NCBI GenBank assembly: GCA_900473915.1
Contig: UCNG01000030.1
Coordinates: 1 to 41,716 of the forward strand
Length of the DNA: 41,716 bases
Reading direction: 5' to 3'
From: Hyphomicrobiales bacterium
Lineage (GTDB): Bacteria; Pseudomonadota; Alphaproteobacteria; Rhizobiales; Rhizobiaceae
The number at the start of each line of letters is the position of its first letter. The first letter of the stretch is position 1. This document shows, in pieces, positions 2,979-16,576 of the stretch. The position numbers were made by a program, and so were the translations under genes. Below the pieces are notes generated by a model. The model searched no databases. It worked only from the letters and a program-made list of their open reading frames with translations, and was not told the origin of the DNA.

Positions 2979-3013
2979 ATGCTTATCCAATTAATATTGA
3001 CGCAATGAATGCG

Positions 3014-3226
3014 TCAGTCGCCGACCTTTACAAGTGGCTTAAAGAACCCTTCGACCAATTGGCGAATCGAATCGTCCTCGACGGAAGCAATAATTCGATC
3101 CACGGCAGCTTGATCAATTAGCCCTCGATGCAGCGCATTGGCATATAAATGCTGCAACAAAAGCTGATGCGCTGCGAAAGCCGCAGGAATGCGATCCAGT
3201 GGATGCAAGTCAGGATAACTCCCCAT
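3014..3226 (-). CDS. Hypothetical protein downstream of repressor
   Basis: 70 residues, not recognised. Largely helical composition (HQLLLQHLYANALHRG, AAVDRIIASVEDDSIRQLVEGFF). An AAGGGG ribosome binding site precedes ATG 3226. It follows the repressor gene by 65 bases on the same strand and is bounded by the terminator at 2951-2978, so it is probably co-transcribed with the repressor and expressed in the lysogen. A role as repressor partner, antirepressor control or immunity accessory is possible but unsupported. Confidence 0.65.
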   Translation of the reverse strand: MGSYPDLHPLDRIPAAFAAHQLLLQHLYANALHRGLIDQAAVDRIIASVEDDSIRQLVEGFFKPLVKVGD

Positions 3227-3290
3227 TCCAATAACCCCTTATGGTTGTAGCAGCGCCAGATTGGCAAGTTACGTCTATAAGGGCAAGAGG

Positions 3291-3899
3291 TTAGCGCGCG
3301 AACTTGCGCCAAACCCGTCGAGAAATACGGCTGTAGAACATTCGCGCCCAATCTACCGGTACATCAACGATGTCCGGAGCATTGTAACTGGTAAGAGTAT
3401 AGAGGCCGTCCTCTGACCCTCGACGAATTGTTTTGATCAGTAGCCGCCCGTCAGACACCTGCACAATGCAAGTCTCTCCAAGTGCGTCTTCTGGCAAAAC
3501 GGTTTCGCCAGAGTAAGCGACCAGATCCCCGTCCTCGAAAATGGGAAACATACTATCGCCGCGAACAATGGCTCCAACGGTTCCTGGGGGCAGCGGGTAT
3601 TCGATGTTCAATGAATATAATGGGTCGCCATCGTCTATCGGGTGGACTGCAGCGCCGGCACCTACATATCCCAGAACATTCAATGACGCGTTTTCTCCGG
3701 GCAACGGATATCCCGTGACCTGAGATATAAGTGTCGATTCATCGCTGGATAACTTGCGAGTGCCGCGCTTAACATTGCTGATCTTGTCTTGGCTAAGCCC
3801 GATTTTGTCAGCCAGTTCGGCCTGCGTCATGCGCGCGAACTTGCGCGCCTTTTCCATCCAGTCTGACCAGTCAATTTTCTTCATATGGACTTTTCGCAT
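3291..3899 (-). CDS. LexA/CI-type phage repressor with S24 peptidase domain
   Basis: 202 residues. Residues about 16-55 form an XRE/CI-type helix-turn-helix (ARMTQAELADKIGLSQDKISNVKRG). Residues about 75-170 are an S24 self-cleaving domain: Ala-Gly candidate cleavage site at about 81-82 (GYVGAGAAV), nucleophile Ser116 in RGDSMFP and base Lys156 in LLIKTIRR. By family knowledge, RecA filaments stimulate self-cleavage after DNA damage, which would induce the prophage. It is transcribed away from the rightward early genes; both flanking promoters carry the same operators. An alternative start is the ATG at 3884 (MKKIDW), since neither start has a strong Shine-Dalgarno. Confidence 0.92.
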   Translation of the reverse strand: MRKVHMKKIDWSDWMEKARKFARMTQAELADKIGLSQDKISNVKRGTRKLSSDESTLISQVTGYPLPGENASLNVLGYVGAGAAVHPIDDGDPLYSLNIEYPLPPGTVGAIVRGDSMFPIFEDGDLVAYSGETVLPEDALGETCIVQVSDGRLLIKTIRRGSEDGLYTLTSYNAPDIVDVPVDWARMFYSRISRRVWRKFAR

Positions 3900-3923
3900 A
3901 ATCCGTACAAAAAATCATTTGCG

Positions 3924-3936
3924 ATTATCAAATAAT
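3924..3936. promoter_or_regulatory. Operator ATTAT-CAA-ATAAT
   Basis: Perfect 5+3+5 palindrome ATTATCAAATAAT between the repressor start and the rightward promoter. Same core as the sites at 2804-2816 and 3958-3970. It is placed where it could control the repressor's own promoter. Confidence 0.65.
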
Positions 3937-3941
3937 TCTTG

Positions 3942-3970
3942 TTGACTTGATTATGGGATTATCGCATAAT
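3942..3970 (+). promoter_or_regulatory. Rightward early promoter with operators
   Basis: TTGACT (3942-3947), 17-base spacer, CATAAT (3965-3970). The perfect palindrome ATTATCGCATAAT (3958-3970) covers the -10 box, and an imperfect one, ATTATGGGATTAT (3950-3962), lies in the spacer. This is the counterpart of lambda PR and should drive the plus-strand early genes when the repressor is inactivated. Confidence 0.8.
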
Positions 3971-4427
3971 TCAATCATCAACCGACGCAAGAGTTGTCGG
4001 AAACACAAAATGGCAGGCAACAGAATGAACATCCTCCCACGGATTTTCGCCCTTAATAGATAGAAACCATTCTCGAGGAGAAGCGCCACGATGAACACAG
4101 CCGAAAGAAGCCGCATCGCTTCTGCGCCACAAGGGCCATAGATTTATTAGGGACACTGGTCGCTGAAATGCGACCGGTGCTTTCGCTATTGCCAGGCTGG
4201 CGCCGTAATCCAACGCCGAAATGCGAAAGCGGAACCAATTAATAAAGCAGGCTGTTATGGGTCGGCACCACCCGTTACCCCAGCCTGCCCGTACGTCGCG
4301 GTTAACACGAGGAGGGCCGAAGCCGCTTCTACGCCGCGATTTCCTTCGCAGGTACCACCCCGCGCGACCAGACAGATGCCGTTAGACACGGCGCTTGTCA
4401 ACCATCACCAACCACACACGAGGAGAC
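3971..4427 (+). other. Early transcript leader without a clear gene
   Basis: About 450 bases from the rightward promoter to the first convincing gene; no cro-like ORF found. It holds several stem-loops: ACTGGTCGC paired with GCGACCGGT (4155-4178), and GCTTTCGC (4178-4185) with GCGAAAGC (4226-4233). Mini-ORFs of 16 codons (4091-4141, good GAGGAG site) and 42 codons (4257-4385, Arg-rich, weak site) exist but have no coding support. An ACACGAGGAG ribosome-site copy at 4305-4314 has no start codon behind it, suggesting a lost gene. The region could act as an attenuator or structured leader. Confidence 0.4.
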
Positions 4428-9605: not shown

Positions 9606-10535
9606 ATGGCCCCGCTCCCAAAAGCCGAATCCAGCACCGTCCGCGCCATTTATCAAGCTTACGAGGCCCAGGCTAAGTCCTGGGACTCGTGGGGCATCAG
9701 CGTGGGCGAGGCGGGCACGGAATGTGACAGAGCCTTGTGGTTCGGCTTCCGCTGGGTCTCAGCGCACGAGGTTCATTCGGGCCGTCAGCTTCGTCTGTTC
9801 GCCACCGGCAATATCGAGGAAGATCGCCTCGTTGCCGACCTCGAACGTATTGGCGTCGATGTCTACGGGCAGCAGGACAAAATCAGGCTGGTCTCGGGGT
9901 TCGTGCGCGGCAAGTGCGACGGCAAGGCAATGGGTGTGCCAGAAGCACCGAAGACCGAACACCTGCTCGAATTCAAGTCGAGTAACGAGAAGGGCATTAA
10001 GGAACTGCAAAAACACGGCTGCCAAAAGGCCAAGCCCTTGCACTACGCCCAGTGCCAGCTCGGGATGCAGGCTTTCGGCCTGACGCGCTGCCTGTATCTG
10101 GCGTCGTGCAAGAACACCGACACGCTTTATGCCGAGCGCATCGAATACGACGTCGAATTCTGCCTTCGGCTGCTGGCACGCTGCGAACGCATCGTGTTTT
10201 CGGACGAACCGCCCAGCCGTATCAGCGAAGATCCCGAGTTCTTCGGCTGCATGTTCTGCAAACATCGTGGCGTTTGCCACGAAGGCGTGCAGCCGCGCGT
10301 AAACTGCCGCACCTGCCTTCATGTTCAACCAGAGCATGGTGGCGATTGCCATATGTCATGCGCGCGTTGGAACAAGCCTTTGTCGATCGACGAACAGCGC
10401 GACGGCTGCCCGGCACACCTCTATCTGCCAGGGCTGATAAATGGCGAGCAGATCGATGCGGACGAGGTTGCGGAGACCGTTACTTATCGACTGGCGACGG
10501 GTGAGATTTGGGTGGATGGGGTGAGGGGAGGCTAA
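9606..10535 (+). CDS. Cas4-like PD-(D/E)XK nuclease with Fe-S cysteines
   Basis: 309 residues. N-terminal Cys40 in GTECDRALWF, nuclease core Asp106 (GKCDGKA), Glu123 and Lys125 (LLEFKSS), a QxQ helix (YAQCQLGMQ, about 149-157) and a C-terminal Cys trio C216-X2-C219-X5-C225. One upstream plus three downstream cysteines around a PD-(D/E)XK core is the Cas4/AddB layout for a 4Fe-4S cluster. Extra cysteines follow (about 235-275) and may bind zinc. Likely a DNA exonuclease for recombination or end-processing. Follows the clamp gene by three bases. Its 3' end overlaps the opposite-strand gene by 56 bases. Confidence 0.85.
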   Translation: MAPLPKAESSTVRAIYQAYEAQAKSWDSWGISVGEAGTECDRALWFGFRWVSAHEVHSGRQLRLFATGNIEEDRLVADLERIGVDVYGQQDKIRLVSGFVRGKCDGKAMGVPEAPKTEHLLEFKSSNEKGIKELQKHGCQKAKPLHYAQCQLGMQAFGLTRCLYLASCKNTDTLYAERIEYDVEFCLRLLARCERIVFSDEPPSRISEDPEFFGCMFCKHRGVCHEGVQPRVNCRTCLHVQPEHGGDCHMSCARWNKPLSIDEQRDGCPAHLYLPGLINGEQIDADEVAETVTYRLATGEIWVDGVRGG

Positions 10536-10962
10536 CTCCATGGCGTTCGAGGCGTTCTCTGGCGGCAACTAATACAGCATCATCAAACCTATCTGGGTGC
10601 TCCATAATGATGAACTCCCCAGTAAACTCGGCAAGCCCGTCATTGATCAGCGCGACGAAACCTTCAGTTTCTTTCGGGCTAAGCGCCCAATCGGAGAGTG
10701 TTTTAATGGCCCCAGTTTCACGTATTTTTCGGCGGGTATAGCCCGCAGCTTGGCGACGGCCGTTCTTGGCGCTCAGGATTTCCTCGAGTGCTGCCACAGC
10801 CTCCCAAATTCGACGCTCAATCGGGTCGTCATAATCGCGTCCAGATAACTGAAAAAGCCGTCGTTTGCAGGCCGTGACGATTTCTGGCGCCTTCCCTTCA
10901 GCATTCTTCATCAGATTTCGGATCTTTTCCGGATCATCCATCTTCATCGGATCTAGTACCAC
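10480..10962 (-). CDS. Hypothetical protein on the opposite strand of the replication operon
   Basis: 160 residues from GTG 10962 (a GGGGG-rich ribosome site lies upstream; ATGs at 10947 and 10941 are alternatives). Predicted mostly helical, with no known motif; composition is protein-like (WALSPKETEGFVALINDGL, FIIMEHPDRFDDAVLVAA). It reads against the surrounding plus-strand operon, overlaps the nuclease gene tail-to-tail and starts only 22 bases from the divergent helicase start. It may be an inserted cargo gene or an antisense-organised control gene; the function is not recognised. Confidence 0.65.
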   Translation of the reverse strand: MVLDPMKMDDPEKIRNLMKNAEGKAPEIVTACKRRLFQLSGRDYDDPIERRIWEAVAALEEILSAKNGRRQAAGYTRRKIRETGAIKTLSDWALSPKETEGFVALINDGLAEFTGEFIIMEHPDRFDDAVLVAARERLERHGVSLPSPHPPKSHPSPVDK

Positions 10963-10984
10963 GTTCCACCCCCGGAGAATTGTA

Positions 10985-12709
10985 TTGCTAACCTTACGCG
11001 ATTATCAACGCGCCTCGGTTGACGGCCTTTACGACTACTGGCGCGAACAACCCGGCTCTCCTCTTATCGTGCTTCCGACGGGCGGCGGCAAGAGCCTAGT
11101 GCTGGGCACGATCTGCAAGGAATTGATCGAAGGCTGGCCCGACATGCGGGTGCTTGTCGTGACGCATGTTCGCGAGCTCATTCTCTCGAACTATCAGGAG
11201 CTTTTGAACATCTGGCCGTTCGCGCCAGCTGGCATTTTTTCGGCTGGCGTAGGCCGGCGGGATGCGAAGGCGCAGATCGTTTTCGGCGGCGTGCAGACCA
11301 TCGCAAACAAAGCCGACCAGATCGGGCATATCGACGTCGTTCTGGTCGATGAAGCCCACCTGATGCCCAGAAATTCGGAGACACAGTACGGCAAGCTGAT
11401 TGATGGCCTGCGCGCCATCAATCCGGACCTAAAGTTGGTTGGCCTCACGGCCACGCCTTATCGTCTGGGTGAGGGGCTTTTGACGGAAGGTGACGGAGCA
11501 CTTTTCGACGACATCTGCTTTGAAAAGCCGATCGGCGACATGATCGAGGAAGGTTATCTCTGCCGTCCTATCTCGAAGGGAATGGCAACCGCCTTCGACC
11601 TGTCGGGCGTCGGCAAACAGGGCGGCGACTACAAGCAGAACGCGCTACAGGCGGCCATCGACAAGGACGATATCACCGCTTCCGTGGTCGACGAGATCGT
11701 CACATATGGCACGGCGTCGGGTGCGGAGCGCAAGGCATGGCTGTGCTTTTGCAGTGGCGTCGAACATGCCCGGCATATGCGGGATGAAATTCGCAGCCGG
11801 GGATTTAGCTGTGAGACGGTGACCGGCGACACCCCAACCGGTGAGCGCGACCGGATTCTGGCTGACTTCAAGGCTGGCAAGATCCGCGCTCTGACAAACA
11901 ACTCGGTGCTTACGACCGGCACGAACCTGCCGATCATCGATCTGGTCGCGTTTTGTCGCCCGACCTTATCAGCGGGCCTTTATGTCCAGATGGCGGGGCG
12001 CGGTCTGCGGCTTTATCCCGGCAAGGAGAACTGCCTCTTTTTGGATTTCGCGGGTGTTGTTCGCAAGCACGGCCCGATCGATGCGGTTACGCCGCCGGGT
12101 ATGAAAAAAGGCGACGGCGAGGCGCCCGTGAAGCAATGTCCGCAAGAGCCTGACGATCGTGGTCTAGTGGGCTGCGGCTCGCTGATCCATGCCTCGCTGC
12201 ATACCTGTCCGGATTGCGGATACGAATTCCCGGTCGACGAAACGCCGAAGATATCTGCGCAGGCCGAAGACGTGCCGATGTTGTCAAAAGACAACGCCAG
12301 CACCCGTCAGGTGGAGCGCCGCACATTTGCATACCACGAAGGCAAGGGCGGTAAGCAGGACAGCGTGAAGGTGTCTTACTGGGTTGGTATGTCGCCAATC
12401 AACGAATGGCTTGGGCCGGCCCATACTGGCTTCTTCAAATCGAAGTCAGACAGGTGGTGGCGAAAGCACGGCGGTCAGGCACCTTTTCCTAAAACCGTGC
12501 TGGAATTCATGGAGCGACAGAACGAGCTGCTGGCAACCGCAGAGATTGTAGTGAAGCCGAACGGCAAATACTGGGAAGTGGTCGACGCTATGCCAGGATC
12601 TGCGAATGACAACACGCCGGGGGCGGGCAACGATAATGAGCCGGCGCCGCACTACGCCCGAGTATCTTCCGGGCTGGCTGACGTATTGGATGACGATATT
12701 CCGTTCTAG
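10985..12709 (+). CDS. SF2 DEAH-box helicase with Zn ribbon and SSB-like acidic C-terminal tip
   Basis: 574 residues. Motif I LPTGGGKS (30-37), motif II DEAH (122-125), motif III TATP (155-158), motif VI QMAGRGLR. A four-Cys zinc ribbon follows (KQCP, GCGS, TCPDCGYEFP; about 380-415), then a region shared with phage helicases of this type, then a disordered tail with two NDN motifs and the final residues DVLDDDIPF. The last six residues equal the conserved tip of bacterial SSB. Probably unwinds or remodels DNA at phage forks. Start chosen as TTG 10985, with CGGAGA 6 bases upstream and the typical LRDYQ beginning; no ATG is suitable. Confidence 0.9.
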   Translation: MLTLRDYQRASVDGLYDYWREQPGSPLIVLPTGGGKSLVLGTICKELIEGWPDMRVLVVTHVRELILSNYQELLNIWPFAPAGIFSAGVGRRDAKAQIVFGGVQTIANKADQIGHIDVVLVDEAHLMPRNSETQYGKLIDGLRAINPDLKLVGLTATPYRLGEGLLTEGDGALFDDICFEKPIGDMIEEGYLCRPISKGMATAFDLSGVGKQGGDYKQNALQAAIDKDDITASVVDEIVTYGTASGAERKAWLCFCSGVEHARHMRDEIRSRGFSCETVTGDTPTGERDRILADFKAGKIRALTNNSVLTTGTNLPIIDLVAFCRPTLSAGLYVQMAGRGLRLYPGKENCLFLDFAGVVRKHGPIDAVTPPGMKKGDGEAPVKQCPQEPDDRGLVGCGSLIHASLHTCPDCGYEFPVDETPKISAQAEDVPMLSKDNASTRQVERRTFAYHEGKGGKQDSVKVSYWVGMSPINEWLGPAHTGFFKSKSDRWWRKHGGQAPFPKTVLEFMERQNELLATAEIVVKPNGKYWEVVDAMPGSANDNTPGAGNDNEPAPHYARVSSGLADVLDDDIPF

Positions 12710-12864
12710 GGAGTTCCGCATCGCATGTTGGGGCGGGGGCTCTGGTTCATGCGATGCGGATGCATTCCAGAGAAGGTTTGCGGCACCAGAATATGGGCAT
12801 ATTAGCGAATGGTGAAATAACAGAATGTAACGGTTGCCAACAATAGGCACCGCAACTGCATGAA

Positions 12865-12984
12865 ATAGAAAAGCCCGCTTCGCGATTGGGAGGAGGAGCG
12901 AAGCGGGCCGATCTGAAAAGCGCGGTTGGGAGGAGGAGTACCGCGCTTAGGGTCCGGTTTCTGGGAGGAGGAGTAAAACCGGAC
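12865..12984 (-). ncRNA. Alpha-r14 (NfeR1-like) anti-Shine-Dalgarno sRNA
   Basis: About 120 bases on the minus strand, from a sigma70 promoter to an intrinsic terminator. Three hairpins: stems GTCCGGTTT/AAACCGGAC (12952-12984), GCGCGGT/ACCGCGC (12920-12946) and GCCCGCTTCG/CGAAGCGGGC (12873-12908). All three loops expose the identical CTCCTCCTCCCA. The third hairpin plus the T-rich run (12861-12872) is the terminator. Length, three-hairpin design and CCUCCUCCC loops match the rhizobial alpha-r14/NfeR1 family, which represses mRNAs by pairing at ribosome binding sites. Here it lies inside a phage early region, antisense in orientation to the operon but without an antisense gene partner. Confidence 0.88.
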
Positions 12985-12990
12985 GAGGCG

Positions 12991-13019
12991 TAAATAGGCG
13001 GTCCACTCATGCGTTGCAA
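12991..13019 (-). promoter_or_regulatory. Promoter of the alpha-r14-like sRNA
   Basis: Minus strand TTGCAA (13014-13019), 17-base spacer, TATTTA (12991-12996). The predicted start at 12984 coincides with the first base of hairpin 1, which strengthens both calls. Confidence 0.75.
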
Positions 13020-13049
13020 GGGCAGAAACTGCATAGCTGATATGCAGGG

Positions 13050-13112
13050 AAAATAAAAACCGCCCGGCAGCGGACGGTGCGCGCCTGGGCGGTCTAACTC
13101 CCTCCCAAGAGT
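13050..13112 (-). ncRNA. Short terminated transcript upstream of the sRNA
   Basis: About 63 bases between a promoter-like sequence and a strong intrinsic terminator: stem ACCGCCC/GGGCGGT (13059-13093) followed by TTTTATTTT on the minus strand. The 5' part contains TTGGGAGGGAG (13098-13108); its TTGGGAGG is the exact complement of CCUCCCAA in two loops of the neighbouring alpha-r14-like sRNA. No start codon follows this Shine-Dalgarno-like sequence. It could be a small sponge RNA or the terminated leader of something lost. The rest of the stretch 12710-13301 shows no gene apart from these two RNAs. Confidence 0.5.
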
Positions 13113-13118
13113 GGCGCG

Positions 13119-13146
13119 AATATACATAAACAACCGTCGCATGCAA
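13119..13146 (-). promoter_or_regulatory. Promoter of the short upstream transcript
   Basis: Minus strand TTGCAT (13141-13146), 16-base spacer, TATATT (13119-13124). Directs transcription into the 63-base unit ending at 13050. Confidence 0.6.
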
Positions 13147-13301
13147 CAGTTAAATCCAAGTATTAATTACACTAAAACAGTAGGATTAAGTTTATCAAAA
13201 TAAACCAATCCATTAACGGGATGCGCCGCGAGGCATGTTAACTTACCTTCCGCTGCTTTGGCGACCTACCAGAGCCAACCACTCAAACACGAGGAGCAAC
13301 A

Positions 13302-13835
13302 ATGCAGAACAATGCCGACAACACGAAAGCACAGAACTATCTGGCCTATGATGTCACCGTTCTGGAACGGGAATTCGCCGACTTGGTTGCGGCATACCCA
13401 GAATTGGCCGAAGATGAGGAACTGCGCGCCGACACAATCGAAGGCGAGACGGACGCATACCGCGTGCTCGGTAAGATCGTGGCCATCGAGCGCGATGCAA
13501 ACAGCATGGTACTGGCCATCGGCGAACGCGCCAAGGAATTGGCCGCGCGCAAAGATCGATACGCCAGACGCAAGGACGCCATGCGGGCCTTGTTGCTGCG
13601 TCTGTTGAAGGCTGCTGACTTGAACAAGGTGAGCTTACCGGAAGCAACTGTGTCGGTCAGCAAAGGGCGCGCCGGCATTGAGATAGTGGACGAATCCGCT
13701 GTGCCTGCGCGTTTTTTGAAGGTTGTGAAATCGCCTGACAAGACGCTTATCAAAGAGGCGCTGGACGCTGGGAAGACCGTCAAGGGAGCCGTACTGCGCG
13801 AAGGCCAGCCAACGCTTACGGTGAGGGCTGCGTGA
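13302..13835 (+). CDS. Siphovirus Gp157 family protein
   Basis: 177 residues. N-terminal half is a long helical, probably coiled-coil region (ADLVAAYPELAEDEELRADT, AIGERAKELAARKDRYARRKDAMRALL), followed by the typical Gp157 C-terminal pattern LPEATVSVSKGRAGIEIVDESAVPARFLK...PDKTLIKEALDAGKTVKGAVL. Gp157 proteins are common next to phage recombination/replication genes; the original member was linked to phage resistance in Streptococcus, and a nuclease-modulating role has been proposed. Here it precedes the SNF2 helicase and methyltransferase. CACGAGGAG leader upstream of ATG 13302. Confidence 0.88.
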   Translation: MQNNADNTKAQNYLAYDVTVLEREFADLVAAYPELAEDEELRADTIEGETDAYRVLGKIVAIERDANSMVLAIGERAKELAARKDRYARRKDAMRALLLRLLKAADLNKVSLPEATVSVSKGRAGIEIVDESAVPARFLKVVKSPDKTLIKEALDAGKTVKGAVLREGQPTLTVRAA

Positions 13836-14059
13836 GCTACGGCGACCAATTCATGAAATGTCCCGAATGCGGCGGCACGGCTGAGGCGGAATGCGTCGAC
13901 GTTGGCGTCGGTCTGTACATCAGCAACGAATACGAATGCCCTTGTGGTTATAATTCGGCGGCTGATGGACGGATGAACGTGGGATGTTATGACGACTGGT
14001 TTCCCGACCTAACCCGCCCGATTGCTGCCGTGCAGCAAGGCGGCGCACCCAGCCTATAA
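13832..14059 (+). CDS. Small zinc-ribbon protein
   Basis: 75 residues. Cys pairs CPEC (10-13) and CPCG (about 36-39) form a four-Cys zinc ribbon; the C-terminus is not conserved-looking. GTG 13832 overlaps the TGA of the Gp157 gene with GAGGG just upstream; ATG 13853 is a shorter alternative. May be a nucleic acid-binding accessory. Confidence 0.65.
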   Translation: MSYGDQFMKCPECGGTAEAECVDVGVGLYISNEYECPCGYNSAADGRMNVGCYDDWFPDLTRPIAAVQQGGAPSL

Positions 14060-14118
14060 CAACCACCCCACCAGCCACCAACTGGCGGGTTACCACCACG
14101 AAACACGAGGAGATGAGG

Positions 14119-15519
14119 ATGGACGCCTACGCGCGTTTCCTGCAAGGGAAGGTCATTGCCGATCCTGTGACAGGAATGACTGACATTCCAGAACCAAGCC
14201 CGACTTTAAAGCCACATCAGCGTGATATCGTGCGGTGGGCTTTGCGCCGTGGGCGTGCTGCTATTTTCGCGGGCACAGGTCTCGGCAAGACATTAATGGA
14301 ACTGACGTGGGCCGAGCATGTCTCGGACTACACCGGCAAGCCTGTTATGATCTTCGCGCCACTGGCAGTCGCAGCACAGCATATTAGAGAAGCGGCCAAG
14401 TTCGGTATTCCCGCCCGTATCGTTGCGTCTCAGTCGGACGTTGGGCCAGGCATCAACGTGACCAATTACCAGAAGATGGATCATTTCTCGCTAGAAGAAT
14501 TTGGCGGCGTTGTGCTCGACGAAAGCAGCATCCTGAAAAGCACGGACGGCAAATACCGCAATCGTCTGATCGAGGAATGCTCGACCATTCCTTTCCGCCT
14601 GGCCGCAACGGCGACGCCAGCACCGAATGATTTCATGGAACTTGGGAACCATGCCGAATTTCTCGGGGTGATGTCCTACACCGACATGCTTGCGACGTTC
14701 TTCACTCATGACGGCGGCGAAACCCAGAAATGGCACCTCAAGGGCCATGCTGAAACCGAGTTCTGGAAATGGATGGCGTCTTGGTCGGTTATGCTGCGCA
14801 AGCCGTCCGACCTTGGATATGACAACGAAGGCTACGACCTTCCGCCGCTGATCTATCATCAGCATACGGTGAAAGTTGAATATGCGCCGAGCCTTGAAAC
14901 TGGCCTTCTTTTTCCGATGGAAGCCCGCACGATGCAGGAACGCATCACGGCACGGAAAGACAGCGTGGACGAACGTGTCGCGCGTGCTGCCCGCCTGACG
15001 CCGAATGACAGGCCATTTGTATGGTGGTGCAATCTCAATAGCGAAGCCGATGCACTTGCAAAGGCTATACCGGGCGCAGTTAACCTGTCTGGATCGGACA
15101 AGGACGACGACAAAGAACGCAAGATTGCGGACTTCCTGTCCGGTAACGCGCGAGTACTGGTTTCCAAGCCTTCGATCTGTGGGTTCGGCCTAAACTTCCA
15201 GCATTGCGCCGACACGGGCTTCGTTGGCCTGAATGACAGCTTCGAGCAGATTTTTCAGGCCGTGCGCCGATTCTGGCGGTTTGGTCAGACCCAGCCCGTA
15301 AATGTCCATTTCATTGCGGCTGAAACGGAAGGTGCGGTTGTCGCCAACCTCCGGCGCAAGGAAGCCGATGCCGAACGTATGGCGGCGGCGATGGTCATGC
15401 ATATGGCCGATCTGTCCAGCGAGGCGGTTCGTGGCGCTGTGCGCGACAAACCAAACTACAACCCGCAACAGCCTATGCAAATACCGGCGTGGCTCACCAC
15501 CAACGCCGTCGCCCACTGA
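14119..15519 (+). CDS. SNF2-family helicase/translocase
   Basis: 466 residues. Walker A AGTGLGKT (51-58), motif II DESS (134-137) in the phage form VVLDESSILKS, motif III ATATPAPND, and the C-terminal helicase lobe with GLNFQHC and RRFWRFGQTQPVNVHF (motif VI region). This is the short phage SNF2 type that usually accompanies a DNA methyltransferase, as it does here, 19 bases downstream. It likely translocates on double-stranded DNA to support replication, recombination or methylation. The ATG at 14119 is preferred over 14113, because CACGAGGAG ends directly before the latter. Confidence 0.9.
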   Translation: MDAYARFLQGKVIADPVTGMTDIPEPSPTLKPHQRDIVRWALRRGRAAIFAGTGLGKTLMELTWAEHVSDYTGKPVMIFAPLAVAAQHIREAAKFGIPARIVASQSDVGPGINVTNYQKMDHFSLEEFGGVVLDESSILKSTDGKYRNRLIEECSTIPFRLAATATPAPNDFMELGNHAEFLGVMSYTDMLATFFTHDGGETQKWHLKGHAETEFWKWMASWSVMLRKPSDLGYDNEGYDLPPLIYHQHTVKVEYAPSLETGLLFPMEARTMQERITARKDSVDERVARAARLTPNDRPFVWWCNLNSEADALAKAIPGAVNLSGSDKDDDKERKIADFLSGNARVLVSKPSICGFGLNFQHCADTGFVGLNDSFEQIFQAVRRFWRFGQTQPVNVHFIAAETEGAVVANLRRKEADAERMAAAMVMHMADLSSEAVRGAVRDKPNYNPQQPMQIPAWLTTNAVAH

Positions 15520-15538
15520 CCGACACGAGGAGAATTTC

Positions 15539-16576
15539 ATGAGCAAGAGACTTACCGACCAATCTATCGAAACGAAAACCGCCGCGGTGAAAGCCGTCAG
15601 CCAAGTCGTCACTGAAAATTACGCCATCTATGAAGGCGACGCTTGCGAGCTCATTTGTGGAGTGCCGACGGGAACGGTGCATTTCGGCATCCATAGTCCG
15701 CCTTTCGAGGGGCTTTATCGGTTCAGCAATTCCGATCGCGACATCAGTAACAACGATGGCGATGGGTTCTGGGAGCACTACGCCTACCTGATCCAAGAAT
15801 TGCTACGCGTGACCATGCCGGGCAGAATCCACGCAGTGCATTGCATGCAGTTGCCAACCAGCAAGATCAGACACGGCCATATCGGCATGCGCGACTTCCG
15901 AGGTGAAGTGGTGCGCGCATACGAAGATGCCGGTTGGATCTTCCATAGTGAAGTTTGCATCTGGAAAGATCCAGTTGTCGCGCAGCAGCGCACGAAATCC
16001 ATCCGTCTTCTGCATAAGCAGATCACCAAGGATAGCACGATCAGCGGTCAGGGACTTGCTGACTATATGCTGATGTTCCGCAAGCCGGGCGATAATCCTG
16101 ACCCGGTTGATGGCATGTTCGATCGTTATGTCGGCTATGGCAACGAACCGACGGCATTGGCTGACCGGCTGGCATCCGGCGAAGATCGGGCACGGGCCGA
16201 GAAATGGTTCTCGATTGAAGTCTGGCAGCGTTATGCATCGCCGGTCTGGATGGATATTAACCAGACACGCACCCTGCAATATCGGTCGGCGCGCGACGAG
16301 AAGGACGAGCAGCACATTTCGCCTTTGCAATTGGACGTTATCGAGCGTTGCATCGAACTGTGGAGCAATCCGGGTGATGTTGTCCTGACGCCATTTCTCG
16401 GTATCGGTAGCGAGGTATACGGCGCGGTTGCTGCCGGGCGTAAGGGTATCGGGTTCGAATTGAAGCCGTCCTACTTCTCGCAGGCTGTAAGGAACATCGC
16501 GGCTTTGGATAATAAGCAAGACAGCATCTTTGACGCCGCCAACGACAACTTCACGGAGGCTGCAAATGCAGCCTGA
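15539..16576 (+). CDS. DNA N4-cytosine/N6-adenine methyltransferase
   Basis: 345 residues. Catalytic motif IV SPPF (53-56) precedes the AdoMet-binding motif I region (LTPFLGIGSEVYGAVAAGRKGIGFELKPSYF, about 284-320), the circularly permuted beta-class order. SPP[YF] is more typical of N4-cytosine enzymes, but N6-adenine cannot be excluded. It is an orphan methyltransferase that could protect phage DNA from host restriction or regulate expression. The C-terminal tail contains AANDNFTE. The ACACGAGGAG leader supports ATG 15539; the frame is open upstream inside the helicase gene but is a shadow there. Confidence 0.9.
   Translation: MSKRLTDQSIETKTAAVKAVSQVVTENYAIYEGDACELICGVPTGTVHFGIHSPPFEGLYRFSNSDRDISNNDGDGFWEHYAYLIQELLRVTMPGRIHAVHCMQLPTSKIRHGHIGMRDFRGEVVRAYEDAGWIFHSEVCIWKDPVVAQQRTKSIRLLHKQITKDSTISGQGLADYMLMFRKPGDNPDPVDGMFDRYVGYGNEPTALADRLASGEDRARAEKWFSIEVWQRYASPVWMDINQTRTLQYRSARDEKDEQHISPLQLDVIERCIELWSNPGDVVLTPFLGIGSEVYGAVAAGRKGIGFELKPSYFSQAVRNIAALDNKQDSIFDAANDNFTEAANAA

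What the first reader, a model, noticed from the sequence alone, without database searches (positions are those of the whole stretch)
12865..12984. Alpha-r14 (NfeR1-like) anti-Shine-Dalgarno sRNA carried by a prophage
The minus strand shows a textbook unit: promoter TTGCAA-17-TATTTA, start at the first stem base, three hairpins with identical CTCCTCCTCCCA loops, the last acting as terminator. This is the structure of the rhizobial alpha-r14/NfeR1 family, known from chromosomes and large plasmids. A copy inside a phage early region is unexpected. The loops are complementary to GAGGAG, the core of the leader used by most early phage genes here, so it could hold down the phage's own early translation in the lysogen, or rewire host mRNAs. 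Family design is established knowledge; the phage role is inference.
Basis: partly seen in the sequence, partly recalled or inferred. Interest (0 to 1): 0.8.

Follow-up and report, generated by a model that had tools for sequence, protein, structure and literature searches.

The report
Phage-borne two-RNA anti-Shine-Dalgarno cassette
A temperate phage of soil bacteria carries a bacterial regulatory RNA of a known family, together with a second small RNA-like unit that resembles its molecular target, as one portable cassette that probably lets the phage adjust how its host's messages are translated.

Summary
Window 12988-12868(-) is a full-length Rfam ar14 (RF02344) sRNA: 81.2 bits against a cut-off of 58.8, three aSD loops, fold z -8.9. 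It lies in the early region of an Ochrobactrum-type temperate phage.

It is not a stray copy. In IMG/VR, 39 of 40 contigs with the exact three-loop pattern carry it antisense just behind a relative of the same helicase gene. Relatives without it have clean empty sites, so about 496 b (12710-13205) is a discrete insertion.

The cassette holds more than ar14. A palindrome fitting the VtlR/LsrB activator box is present in 23 of 23 distinct phage copies. Upstream lies a companion unit of about 62 nt: promoter-like hexamers, SD-like motif, terminator. It accompanies ar14 in 40 of 40 viral contigs found by it and in 31 of 35 genomes of the host genus.

Best reading: a host-derived pair, aSD repressor RNA plus likely decoy, under host stress control, acting mainly on host mRNAs. 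Self-repression of early phage genes is weakly supported: relatives lacking the cassette keep the GAGGAG leader. No transcript was tested.

The parts
12868..12988 (-). ar14 (NfeR1-family) sRNA gene; three hairpins with CUCCUCCUCCCA loops, last hairpin = terminator
   Evidence: Rfam RF02344 81.2 bits vs 58.8; fold z -8.92; covariation in phage copies
12991..13019 (-). ar14 promoter: TTGCAA (13019-13014), 17 nt, TATTTA (12996-12991)
   Evidence: sequence; similar hexamers in phage and chromosomal modules; generic scan negative
13030..13046 (.). palindrome TGCATA-N5-TATGCA fitting the VtlR box GCAT-N3-TG-N3-T and the LTTR T-N11-A rule; candidate VtlR/LsrB activator site
   Evidence: only match in window within 1 mismatch, 0.06 expected; box in 23 of 23 distinct phage modules vs 0.8-0.9% in shuffles; box definitions from PMC7486931 and PMC10746234
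13051..13112 (-). companion unit (about 62 nt, predicted RNA): 5' UUGGGAGGGAG (13108-13098) then terminator hairpin (13093-13059) and T-run
   Evidence: conserved in both phage groups and chromosomal copies; covariance model R1; no Rfam match over a cut-off; terminator scan
13119..13146 (-). companion promoter-like hexamers TTGCAT (13146-13141), 16 nt, TATATT (13124-13119)
   Evidence: sequence; in the main chromosomal type the hexamers recur in 29 of 29 copies around a variable spacer; not seen in that form in the other types
12710..13205 (.). whole inserted cassette (about 496 b) between helicase stop and the Gam leader region
   Evidence: empty sites in relatives, e.g. L110: helicase stop followed directly by the base matching 13206
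12715..12760 (.). perfect 13-bp hairpin with G-rich loop (+ strand) inside the cassette, role unknown
   Evidence: fold of 12700-12800 z -4.35; related hairpins with different stems in L026 and L084
10985..12709 (+). hel1, ResIII/helicase gene next to the cassette (start uncertain)
   Evidence: Pfam ResIII and Helicase_C, PHROG DNA helicase
13302..13835 (+). Mu Gam-like / Sipho_Gp157 gene on the other side, with CACGAGGAG leader at 13288-13296
3291..3899 (-). CI-like transcriptional repressor (temperate phage)
   Evidence: PHROG phrog_4, E 2.6e-15

Best explanation
The locus is a host-derived two-RNA cassette carried by a temperate Ochrobactrum-type phage. In the lysogen a host LysR regulator (VtlR/LsrB) binds the palindrome at 13030-13046 and turns on the ar14 sRNA. 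Its three CUCCUCCUCCC loops pair with Shine-Dalgarno regions of host mRNAs, as NfeR1 does, and lower their translation, so the phage adds a dose of a stress-responsive riboregulator to its host. The companion, made from its own promoter just upstream, carries a Shine-Dalgarno-like stretch near its 5' end and probably acts as a decoy that limits ar14 (its own and the host's). Shown here: family membership, structure and covariation, insertion boundaries, close pairing of the two elements, conservation of the activator box and of the SD-like motif in three of four companion types. Inferred: transcription, VtlR binding, mRNA targets, decoy function, benefit to the phage.
For: RF02344 match well over the cut-off. 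Covariation among phage copies. 39 of 40 IMG/VR contigs with the exact pattern carry it at the same place. Empty sites. VtlR box in 23 of 23 distinct phage modules and 41 of 52 other modules, against 0.7-0.9% in letter shuffles. Of 40 viral contigs found by a companion pattern, 38 are among the 39 with exact ar14 loops and the other two (L245, L246) carry ar14 on reading; the companion pattern is absent from all 23 ar14-less relatives examined. Companion in 31 of 35 genomes of the genus, 57 matches; 51 of 57 have a listed ar14 61-214 nt downstream. Grouped by terminator stem alone, 29 of 29 copies of the main chromosomal type carry ACTTGGAGGAG, between variable flanks. Main chromosomal, phage-A and B-like companions: 31 of 32 distinct segments match the ar14 loop complement over 7 nt or more (about 2% of shuffles), the 16S tail over 5-6. 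Precedents: NfeR1 aSD loops silence mRNAs and LsrB activates nfeR1 (PMC10746234); CrfA, with a G/A-rich stem-loop, sponges the aSD-bearing SisA-D sRNAs in Caulobacter (PMC12559287).
Against: No expression data. Only one of six S. meliloti NfeR1 loci is detectably expressed (PMC7143759), so a phage copy may be silent. The palindrome lies about 10-14 nt closer to the presumed start than the LsrB site of PnfeR1. VtlR targets named for Brucella are AbcR2 and DUF1127 genes; 'ar14' is not in that paper (PMC12595884). The companion-ar14 duplex is not exceptional for a purine-rich 20-mer (91 of 500 shuffles as good) and cofolding gains only 0.1-2.9 kcal/mol. The second chromosomal companion type (17 of 56 copies) has GGAGG in only 3 and GGAG in 15, and matches the loop over only 4-5 nt in 10 of 12 distinct segments. 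Part of the purine stretch can pair with the terminator U-tract. One chromosomal companion (G065) has no CCTCC within 260 nt downstream. The box is missing in 11 of 52 non-phage modules. The cassette is absent from 8 of 26 close relatives, so it is dispensable.
Confidence: 0.58

Rival explanations
1. Self-control or superinfection immunity: ar14 from the prophage pairs with the repeated CACGAGGAG leaders of its own and related phages' early genes and holds down their translation.
For: CACGAGGAG occurs 10 times (0.37 expected), seven of them on the + strand between 4306 and 15532. GAGGAG can form 6 bp with every loop. Leader duplex energies are -9.8 to -10.8 kcal/mol with the loop against -7.5 to -8.7 with the 16S tail. 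Prophage sRNAs that limit other phages exist (svsR, PMC12803456, abstract).
Against: The leader occurs in all 19 examined loci of relatives without the cassette. Other phage leaders pair more strongly. The cassette also sits on chromosomes without relatives of this phage's genes nearby. Genomes of the host genus already hold 3-8 ar14 matches each.
Confidence: 0.2
2. The companion is not an RNA regulator: it is an insulating terminator whose purine flank pairs with the U-tract, and only ar14 matters.
For: Part of the purine stretch pairs with the U-run in some folds. Energy of the companion-ar14 duplex is not exceptional. In the second chromosomal type the motif is weak. No transcript data.
Against: In the main chromosomal type the bases next to the stem vary while the distal ACTTGGAGGAG is the same in 29 of 29 copies, and promoter-like hexamers recur around a variable spacer. 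One copy is kept although ar14 loops are missing downstream (G065).
Confidence: 0.33
3. Passive cargo: a chromosomal fragment caught by chance in a phage and drifting, without function in the phage.
For: Presence is patchy: 18 of 26 close relatives, 1 of 11 with 52-55% helicase identity, 0 of 38 others counted in that scan. Relatives hold other cargo at the site.
Against: Stem covariation, box in 23 of 23 distinct copies, pairing of both elements in two diverged phage groups.
Confidence: 0.12
4. Ribosome-directed reading: the companion mimics an SD and binds the 16S 3' tail, or the + strand early transcript (three TGGGAGGAGGAG stretches) does, while ar14 covers SDs.
For: GGAGG core in the main, A and B-like companions. 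The antisense strand folds into hairpins that hold TGGGAGGAGGAG. No terminator found on the + strand in 12600-13400.
Against: Companion flanks depart from the 16S complement (matches of 5-6 nt) and fit the ar14 loop better. Duplex energies with the 16S tail are weaker than with ar14, though ar14 is the far longer partner in that comparison.
Confidence: 0.1

Closest known systems
alpha-r14 / NfeR1 (Rfam RF02344; 'cuckoo' RNA)
   Same: Length, three hairpins, CCUCCUCCC aSD loops, sigma-70-type promoter with an upstream LysR-type box.
   Different: Carried by a temperate phage as an insertion; paired with a companion unit; NtrC-type site not examined; expression and targets unknown.
CrfA sponge and SisA-D (alpha-r8) of Caulobacter (PMC12559287, abstract and passages)
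   Same: A purine-rich RNA antagonising a family of aSD-bearing sRNAs; here the companion's SD-like motif matches the ar14 loop.
   Different: CrfA uses a G/A-rich stem-loop and acts on alpha-r8; here target and presumed decoy lie side by side, the motif is near the 5' end, and antagonism is unproven.
AgvB, phage-encoded anti-sRNA against GcvB in E. coli (PMC4104026, passages)
   Same: Phage-borne small RNA whose 5' region imitates the target of a core-genome sRNA.
   Different: AgvB opposes the core-genome GcvB and binds Hfq; this cassette carries both presumed members, and Hfq binding is unknown.
CcsR1 (RF02791)
   Same: CCUCCUCCC loops in hairpins.
   Different: 28.8 bits against a cut-off of 65.3: not a member.
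svsR prophage sRNA (PMC12803456, abstract)
   Same: A prophage sRNA that retunes host uptake genes.
   Different: Different host; no paired decoy mentioned in the abstract.

Membership tests
ar14 / NfeR1 (RF02344) | Covariance model score over the curated cut-off, full length | tested here: met
   81.2 vs 58.8 bits, positions 1-123 of 123
ar14 / NfeR1 (RF02344) | Three hairpins, each with an unpaired CCUCCUCCC motif; stems variable in sequence | tested here: met
   Sequence and fold; stems covary among phage copies
ar14 / NfeR1 (RF02344) | Own sigma-70 promoter with LTTR (LsrB-type) box upstream | tested here: inconclusive
   Hexamers and palindrome/VtlR box present; generic promoter scan negative; spacing to the start 10-14 nt shorter than in PnfeR1; binding not testable
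ar14 / NfeR1 (RF02344) | NtrC site TGC-N11-GCA upstream of PnfeR1 | not tested
   Not searched for; the paper says it is not evident in Agrobacterium or Brucella
ar14 / NfeR1 (RF02344) | Transcript of about 120 nt that silences mRNAs at the SD, Hfq-independent | not testable with these tools
   No expression data
CcsR1 (RF02791) | Covariance model score over the cut-off | tested here: not met
   28.8 vs 65.3 bits
Sponge / anti-sRNA (for the companion) | Independent transcript with own promoter and terminator | tested here: inconclusive
   Recurring hexamers and terminator; no transcript data
Sponge / anti-sRNA (for the companion) | Motif complementary to the target sRNA's seed beyond chance | tested here: inconclusive
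   7 nt or more in 31 of 32 distinct main, A and B-like segments (about 2% of shuffles) but 4-5 nt in 10 of 12 of the second chromosomal type; duplex energy not exceptional
Moron-like phage cargo | Extra unit with its own transcription signals, absent in relatives, flanked by genes that are adjacent without it | tested here: met
   Empty sites; own promoter-like and terminator signals on the opposite strand; transcription itself untested

The most novel reading that the evidence does not exclude
Ochrobactrum/Brucella-group bacteria and their temperate phages share a portable riboregulatory cassette made of an anti-Shine-Dalgarno sRNA and its own Shine-Dalgarno-mimicking antagonist RNA, adjacent and independently transcribed. 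The phage uses the host's VtlR/LsrB stress regulator to set the balance of the two and so shifts translation of host nutrient-uptake and nitrogen genes during lysogeny.
Probability: 0.3. Interest if true: 0.82.

Novelty: new variant of a known kind. Interest (0 to 1): 0.6.

Why it matters
If right, this is an NfeR1-family sRNA moved by phages together with a partner RNA: a riboregulatory circuit as phage cargo, wired to a host stress regulator. Relatives with empty sites give a natural with/without comparison to test what an extra aSD sRNA does to a lysogen. It also points to a candidate RNA family, not in Rfam 15, that accompanies ar14 across a genus.

Tried and rejected
CcsR1 membership: rejected by score. 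Rfam identity for the companion: none over a cut-off. SD of a small ORF as the meaning of the companion's GGAGG: no conserved start codon follows at a usable distance in the rows (read by eye). Exceptional companion-ar14 duplex energy: not found. A conserved 5' mini-hairpin in the companion: the fold differs between types, and one arm changes without compensation in L007 and L017 (rows). Two separate captures by phage groups A and B: the tree separates them, but one clade of all phage copies is not rejected, p-AU 0.087. Known phages in INPHARED: no near match to 1-24000, 18 distant matches covering at most 19% of 10500-16500, no ar14-like stretch (one spurious 28-base match); the tool warns that records near the window may be left out. 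Generic promoter scan: nothing.

Rows dropped and limits: L033 (1 of 40 contigs) is a repetitive sequence without the stems and was left out of the later alignments. Of 91 modules that met a loop-spacing filter 76 were distinct; one of these (G001_C2_258640, diverged loops) could not be placed for the box count, so that covers 75. The 55 further ar14 clusters include copies already counted as modules (at least 4 of the 16 with a box: L045, L047, L184, L185). My first grouping of chromosomal companions used the motif itself and was circular for the claim of invariance; regroups by terminator stem alone and gives 29 of 29. The helicase scan kept the best 80 of 96.

The statement that a phage-borne ar14 and the companion were not seen in print rests on searches in open-licence PMC only, of which I saw listings and the papers named in the report; the cuckoo-RNA paper of Reinkensmeier and Giegerich was not read.

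Full report
OBSERVATION. The RNA folds into three hairpins at -53.9 kcal/mol, z -8.92, with none of 200 shuffles as good. The stems covary: 11 distinct phage copies give 329 of 330 paired cells, 14 variable pairs, 8 of 30 with two-sided changes. With one chromosomal copy added the counts are 359 of 360 and 10. Stem rows were aligned by hand. Identity of the loops in these rows is partly selection, because the scan asked for exact loops.

SETTING. Neighbouring genes are phage recombination and replication genes: Sak4, beta clamp, Cas4-type exonuclease, helicase, Gam/Gp157, helicase, methylase, primase-polymerase. A CI-like repressor at 3291-3899(-), terminase, portal and capsid genes mark a temperate tailed phage. 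INPHARED gives no near match to 1-24000. Nine loci of named genomes encode a relative of the adjacent helicase: six Ochrobactrum or Brucella (mostly ex-Ochrobactrum species), one unnamed Rhizobiales, one Pseudaminobacter, one Mesorhizobium; two of the nine (L155, L163) carry ar14 within the 3 kb downstream. The window's own assembly is not held.

A FIXED PLACE AND EMPTY SITES. An exact three-loop pattern was scanned in IMG/VR: 40 contigs. In 39 the sRNA lies antisense directly behind a relative of the helicase gene; the fortieth (L033) has no such gene and no matching stems. Two groups exist: A (helicase 92-97% identical, except L024 with 55%; sRNA about 180 b away) and B (47-56%, about 34-49 b away). 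A scan with the helicase protein alone kept the best 80 of 96 candidates, 78 loci. Of 26 with at least 93% identity and at least 300 b held downstream, 18 have ar14 and 8 lack it. Of 11 at 52-55%, one has it. None of five at 69-86% and none of 33 at 45% or less has it, though many of those are cut short (counts made from that list; L099, L108 and L104 with under 300 b downstream left out). Ten of the lacking loci show the helicase stop followed directly by the sequence that in the window starts near 13206 (L087, L091, L092, L094, L095, L110, L112, L113, L119, L121). The insertion is thus about 12710-13205. Other relatives hold other reading frames there (L097, L098, L109, L116).

THE ACTIVATOR BOX. 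Aligning the upstream parts of phage and chromosomal copies showed conserved islands. The palindrome TGCATA-N5-TATGCA at 13030-13046 is the only match in the window within one mismatch (0.06 expected). It fits the VtlR box GCAT-N3-TG-N3-T, described as confirmed in Brucella abortus and hypothesised in Agrobacterium (PMC7486931, passages), and the T-N11-A rule of the LsrB site that activates nfeR1 (PMC10746234, introduction and passages). LsrB is called a homolog of VtlR (PMC12595884, passages). The short box alone is not rare (15 matches in the window, 7.0 expected). In the place before ar14 it occurs in 14 of 14 group A and 9 of 9 group B distinct modules and 41 of 52 other modules, against 0.7-0.9% in letter shuffles. 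Among 55 ar14 clusters in 42 family and genus loci, a few of which are module copies, 16 have it, 0.74 expected.

THE COMPANION. Further up lies a second unit: hexamers TTGCAT-16-TATATT, an SD-like stretch UUGGGAGGGAG and a terminator (13112-13051). A covariance model of it (R1, 11 rows) finds it in 31 of 35 genomes of the genus (57 matches) and in 4 of 61 genomes drawn from the family: two of the same genus, two weak matches elsewhere. ar14 itself is in 60 of 61 and 35 of 35. Of the 57 companion matches, 51 have a listed ar14 61-214 nt downstream on the same strand, although that ar14 list was cut at 150 rows. Of 56 that I fetched and read, one (G065) has no CCTCC within 260 nt. From the other side, 40 IMG/VR contigs match a companion pattern: 38 are among the 39 above, and the other two (L245, L246) also carry ar14 when read. 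The missing one of the 39, L036, is cut by the contig end inside the companion. None of 23 ar14-less relatives examined has the companion pattern.

Grouped by terminator stem alone, the 56 chromosomal and prophage copies fall into a main type (29), a second type (17), B-like (8) and A-like (2). ACTTGGAGGAG and TTGCTTT-N-TTATT are in 29 of 29 of the main type; GGGAGG is in 8 of 8 and 2 of 2 of the phage-like types; in the second type GGAGG is in only 3 of 17 and GGAG in 15. In the main type the bases on both sides of the motif vary (27 distinct rows). That argues against a mere terminator flank there, but the second type weakens the general claim. Longest exact matches to the complement of the ar14 loop are 7 or more in 31 of 32 distinct segments of the main, A and B-like types (about 2% of shuffles), to the 16S tail 5-6; in the second type 4-5 in 10 of 12. 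Duplex energy is not beyond that of shuffled purine-rich segments (91 of 500 as good) and cofolding gains 0.1-2.9 kcal/mol, so pairing is possible but not proven special.

ORIGIN. Ten 9-10 kb stretches around chromosomal modules, plus 7 kb around the G001 pair, hold no relative of window reading frames of 90 aa or more apart from frames overlapping ar14 itself (tblastn); other kinds of prophage were not excluded. In the tree of 76 modules group A is one clade with two prophage copies, and group B sits in a well supported clade with eight genome copies. A single phage clade is not rejected (p-AU 0.087). So the cassette most likely came from the host genus; once or twice is open.

MECHANISM. NfeR1 silences mRNAs (ntrBC, two ABC-transporter genes) through redundant aSD loops, is activated by LsrB and repressed by NtrC (PMC10746234). 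The phage loops carry the same motif, so the same kind of target is expected (inference). The companion would be the second member of a push-pull pair. The closest experimental precedent that I found is CrfA, whose G/A-rich stem-loop sequesters four aSD-bearing sRNAs in Caulobacter (PMC12559287, abstract and passages); for a phage-borne target mimic it is AgvB (PMC4104026, passages). But it occurs 2-4 times in each of 19 loci of relatives without the cassette, and it is not the strongest partner among phage leaders (gene starts there were chosen by me and some are uncertain).

LIMITS. No transcript, binding or target was measured. Chromosomal copies are counted in genomes chosen by the tool. 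Exact-pattern scans miss diverged copies. Papers not named as read were seen only in search listings; none was read whole.

VERDICT. A real, phage-borne ar14 sRNA: a member of that family, in a new arrangement with a partner unit that Rfam does not hold and a host-type activator box.

Noticed in passing
window 1780, 2729 (-); 4306, 4417, 6537, 8526, 13288, 14104, 15524, 23953 (+): Repeated leader CACGAGGAG, 10 copies against 0.37 expected, several just before early gene starts; 2-4 copies in each of 19 loci of relatives without the sRNA cassette. A shared translation leader of this phage group.
   Followed up: partly
window 12715-12760; L026 near 5650; L084 near 4735; group B loci upstream of the companion: Hairpin with a G-rich loop (TTGGGCGGGGGGCTTGGG type on the + strand) at one end of the cassette in group A and at the other end in group B; stems differ but stay paired. 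Role unknown.
   Followed up: partly
L098, L109, L097, L116 downstream of hel1: The cassette site looks like a cargo hotspot: these relatives carry other reading frames there, in L098 and L109 one that reads like a small helix-turn-helix protein (not scanned), in L097 in addition to ar14.
   Followed up: no
G065:C1:292855-292916 (L223, L243): Companion with the main-type hexamers and motif but no CCTCC within 260 nt downstream: possible stand-alone copy.
   Followed up: partly
L054, L056, L062, L066, L068 and others, upstream of ar14 clusters: Several ar14 clusters in the family lie just behind small DUF1127-like reading frames, some in tandem arrays of two or more ar14 copies (read by eye; DUF1127 name recalled, not scanned).
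   Followed up: no
window 12865-12990 (+): Read from the + strand, the sRNA gene gives three hairpins that hold TGGGAGGAGGAG; early read-through from hel1 would make a natural antisense or SD-like RNA (no + strand terminator found in 12600-13400).
   Followed up: partly
L232 around 3000-4300 (G001:C2:258067-258890): Two companion+ar14 modules in divergent orientation on the host's C2 contig, near a MinD-like gene (name from reading the frame, not scanned).
   Followed up: partly
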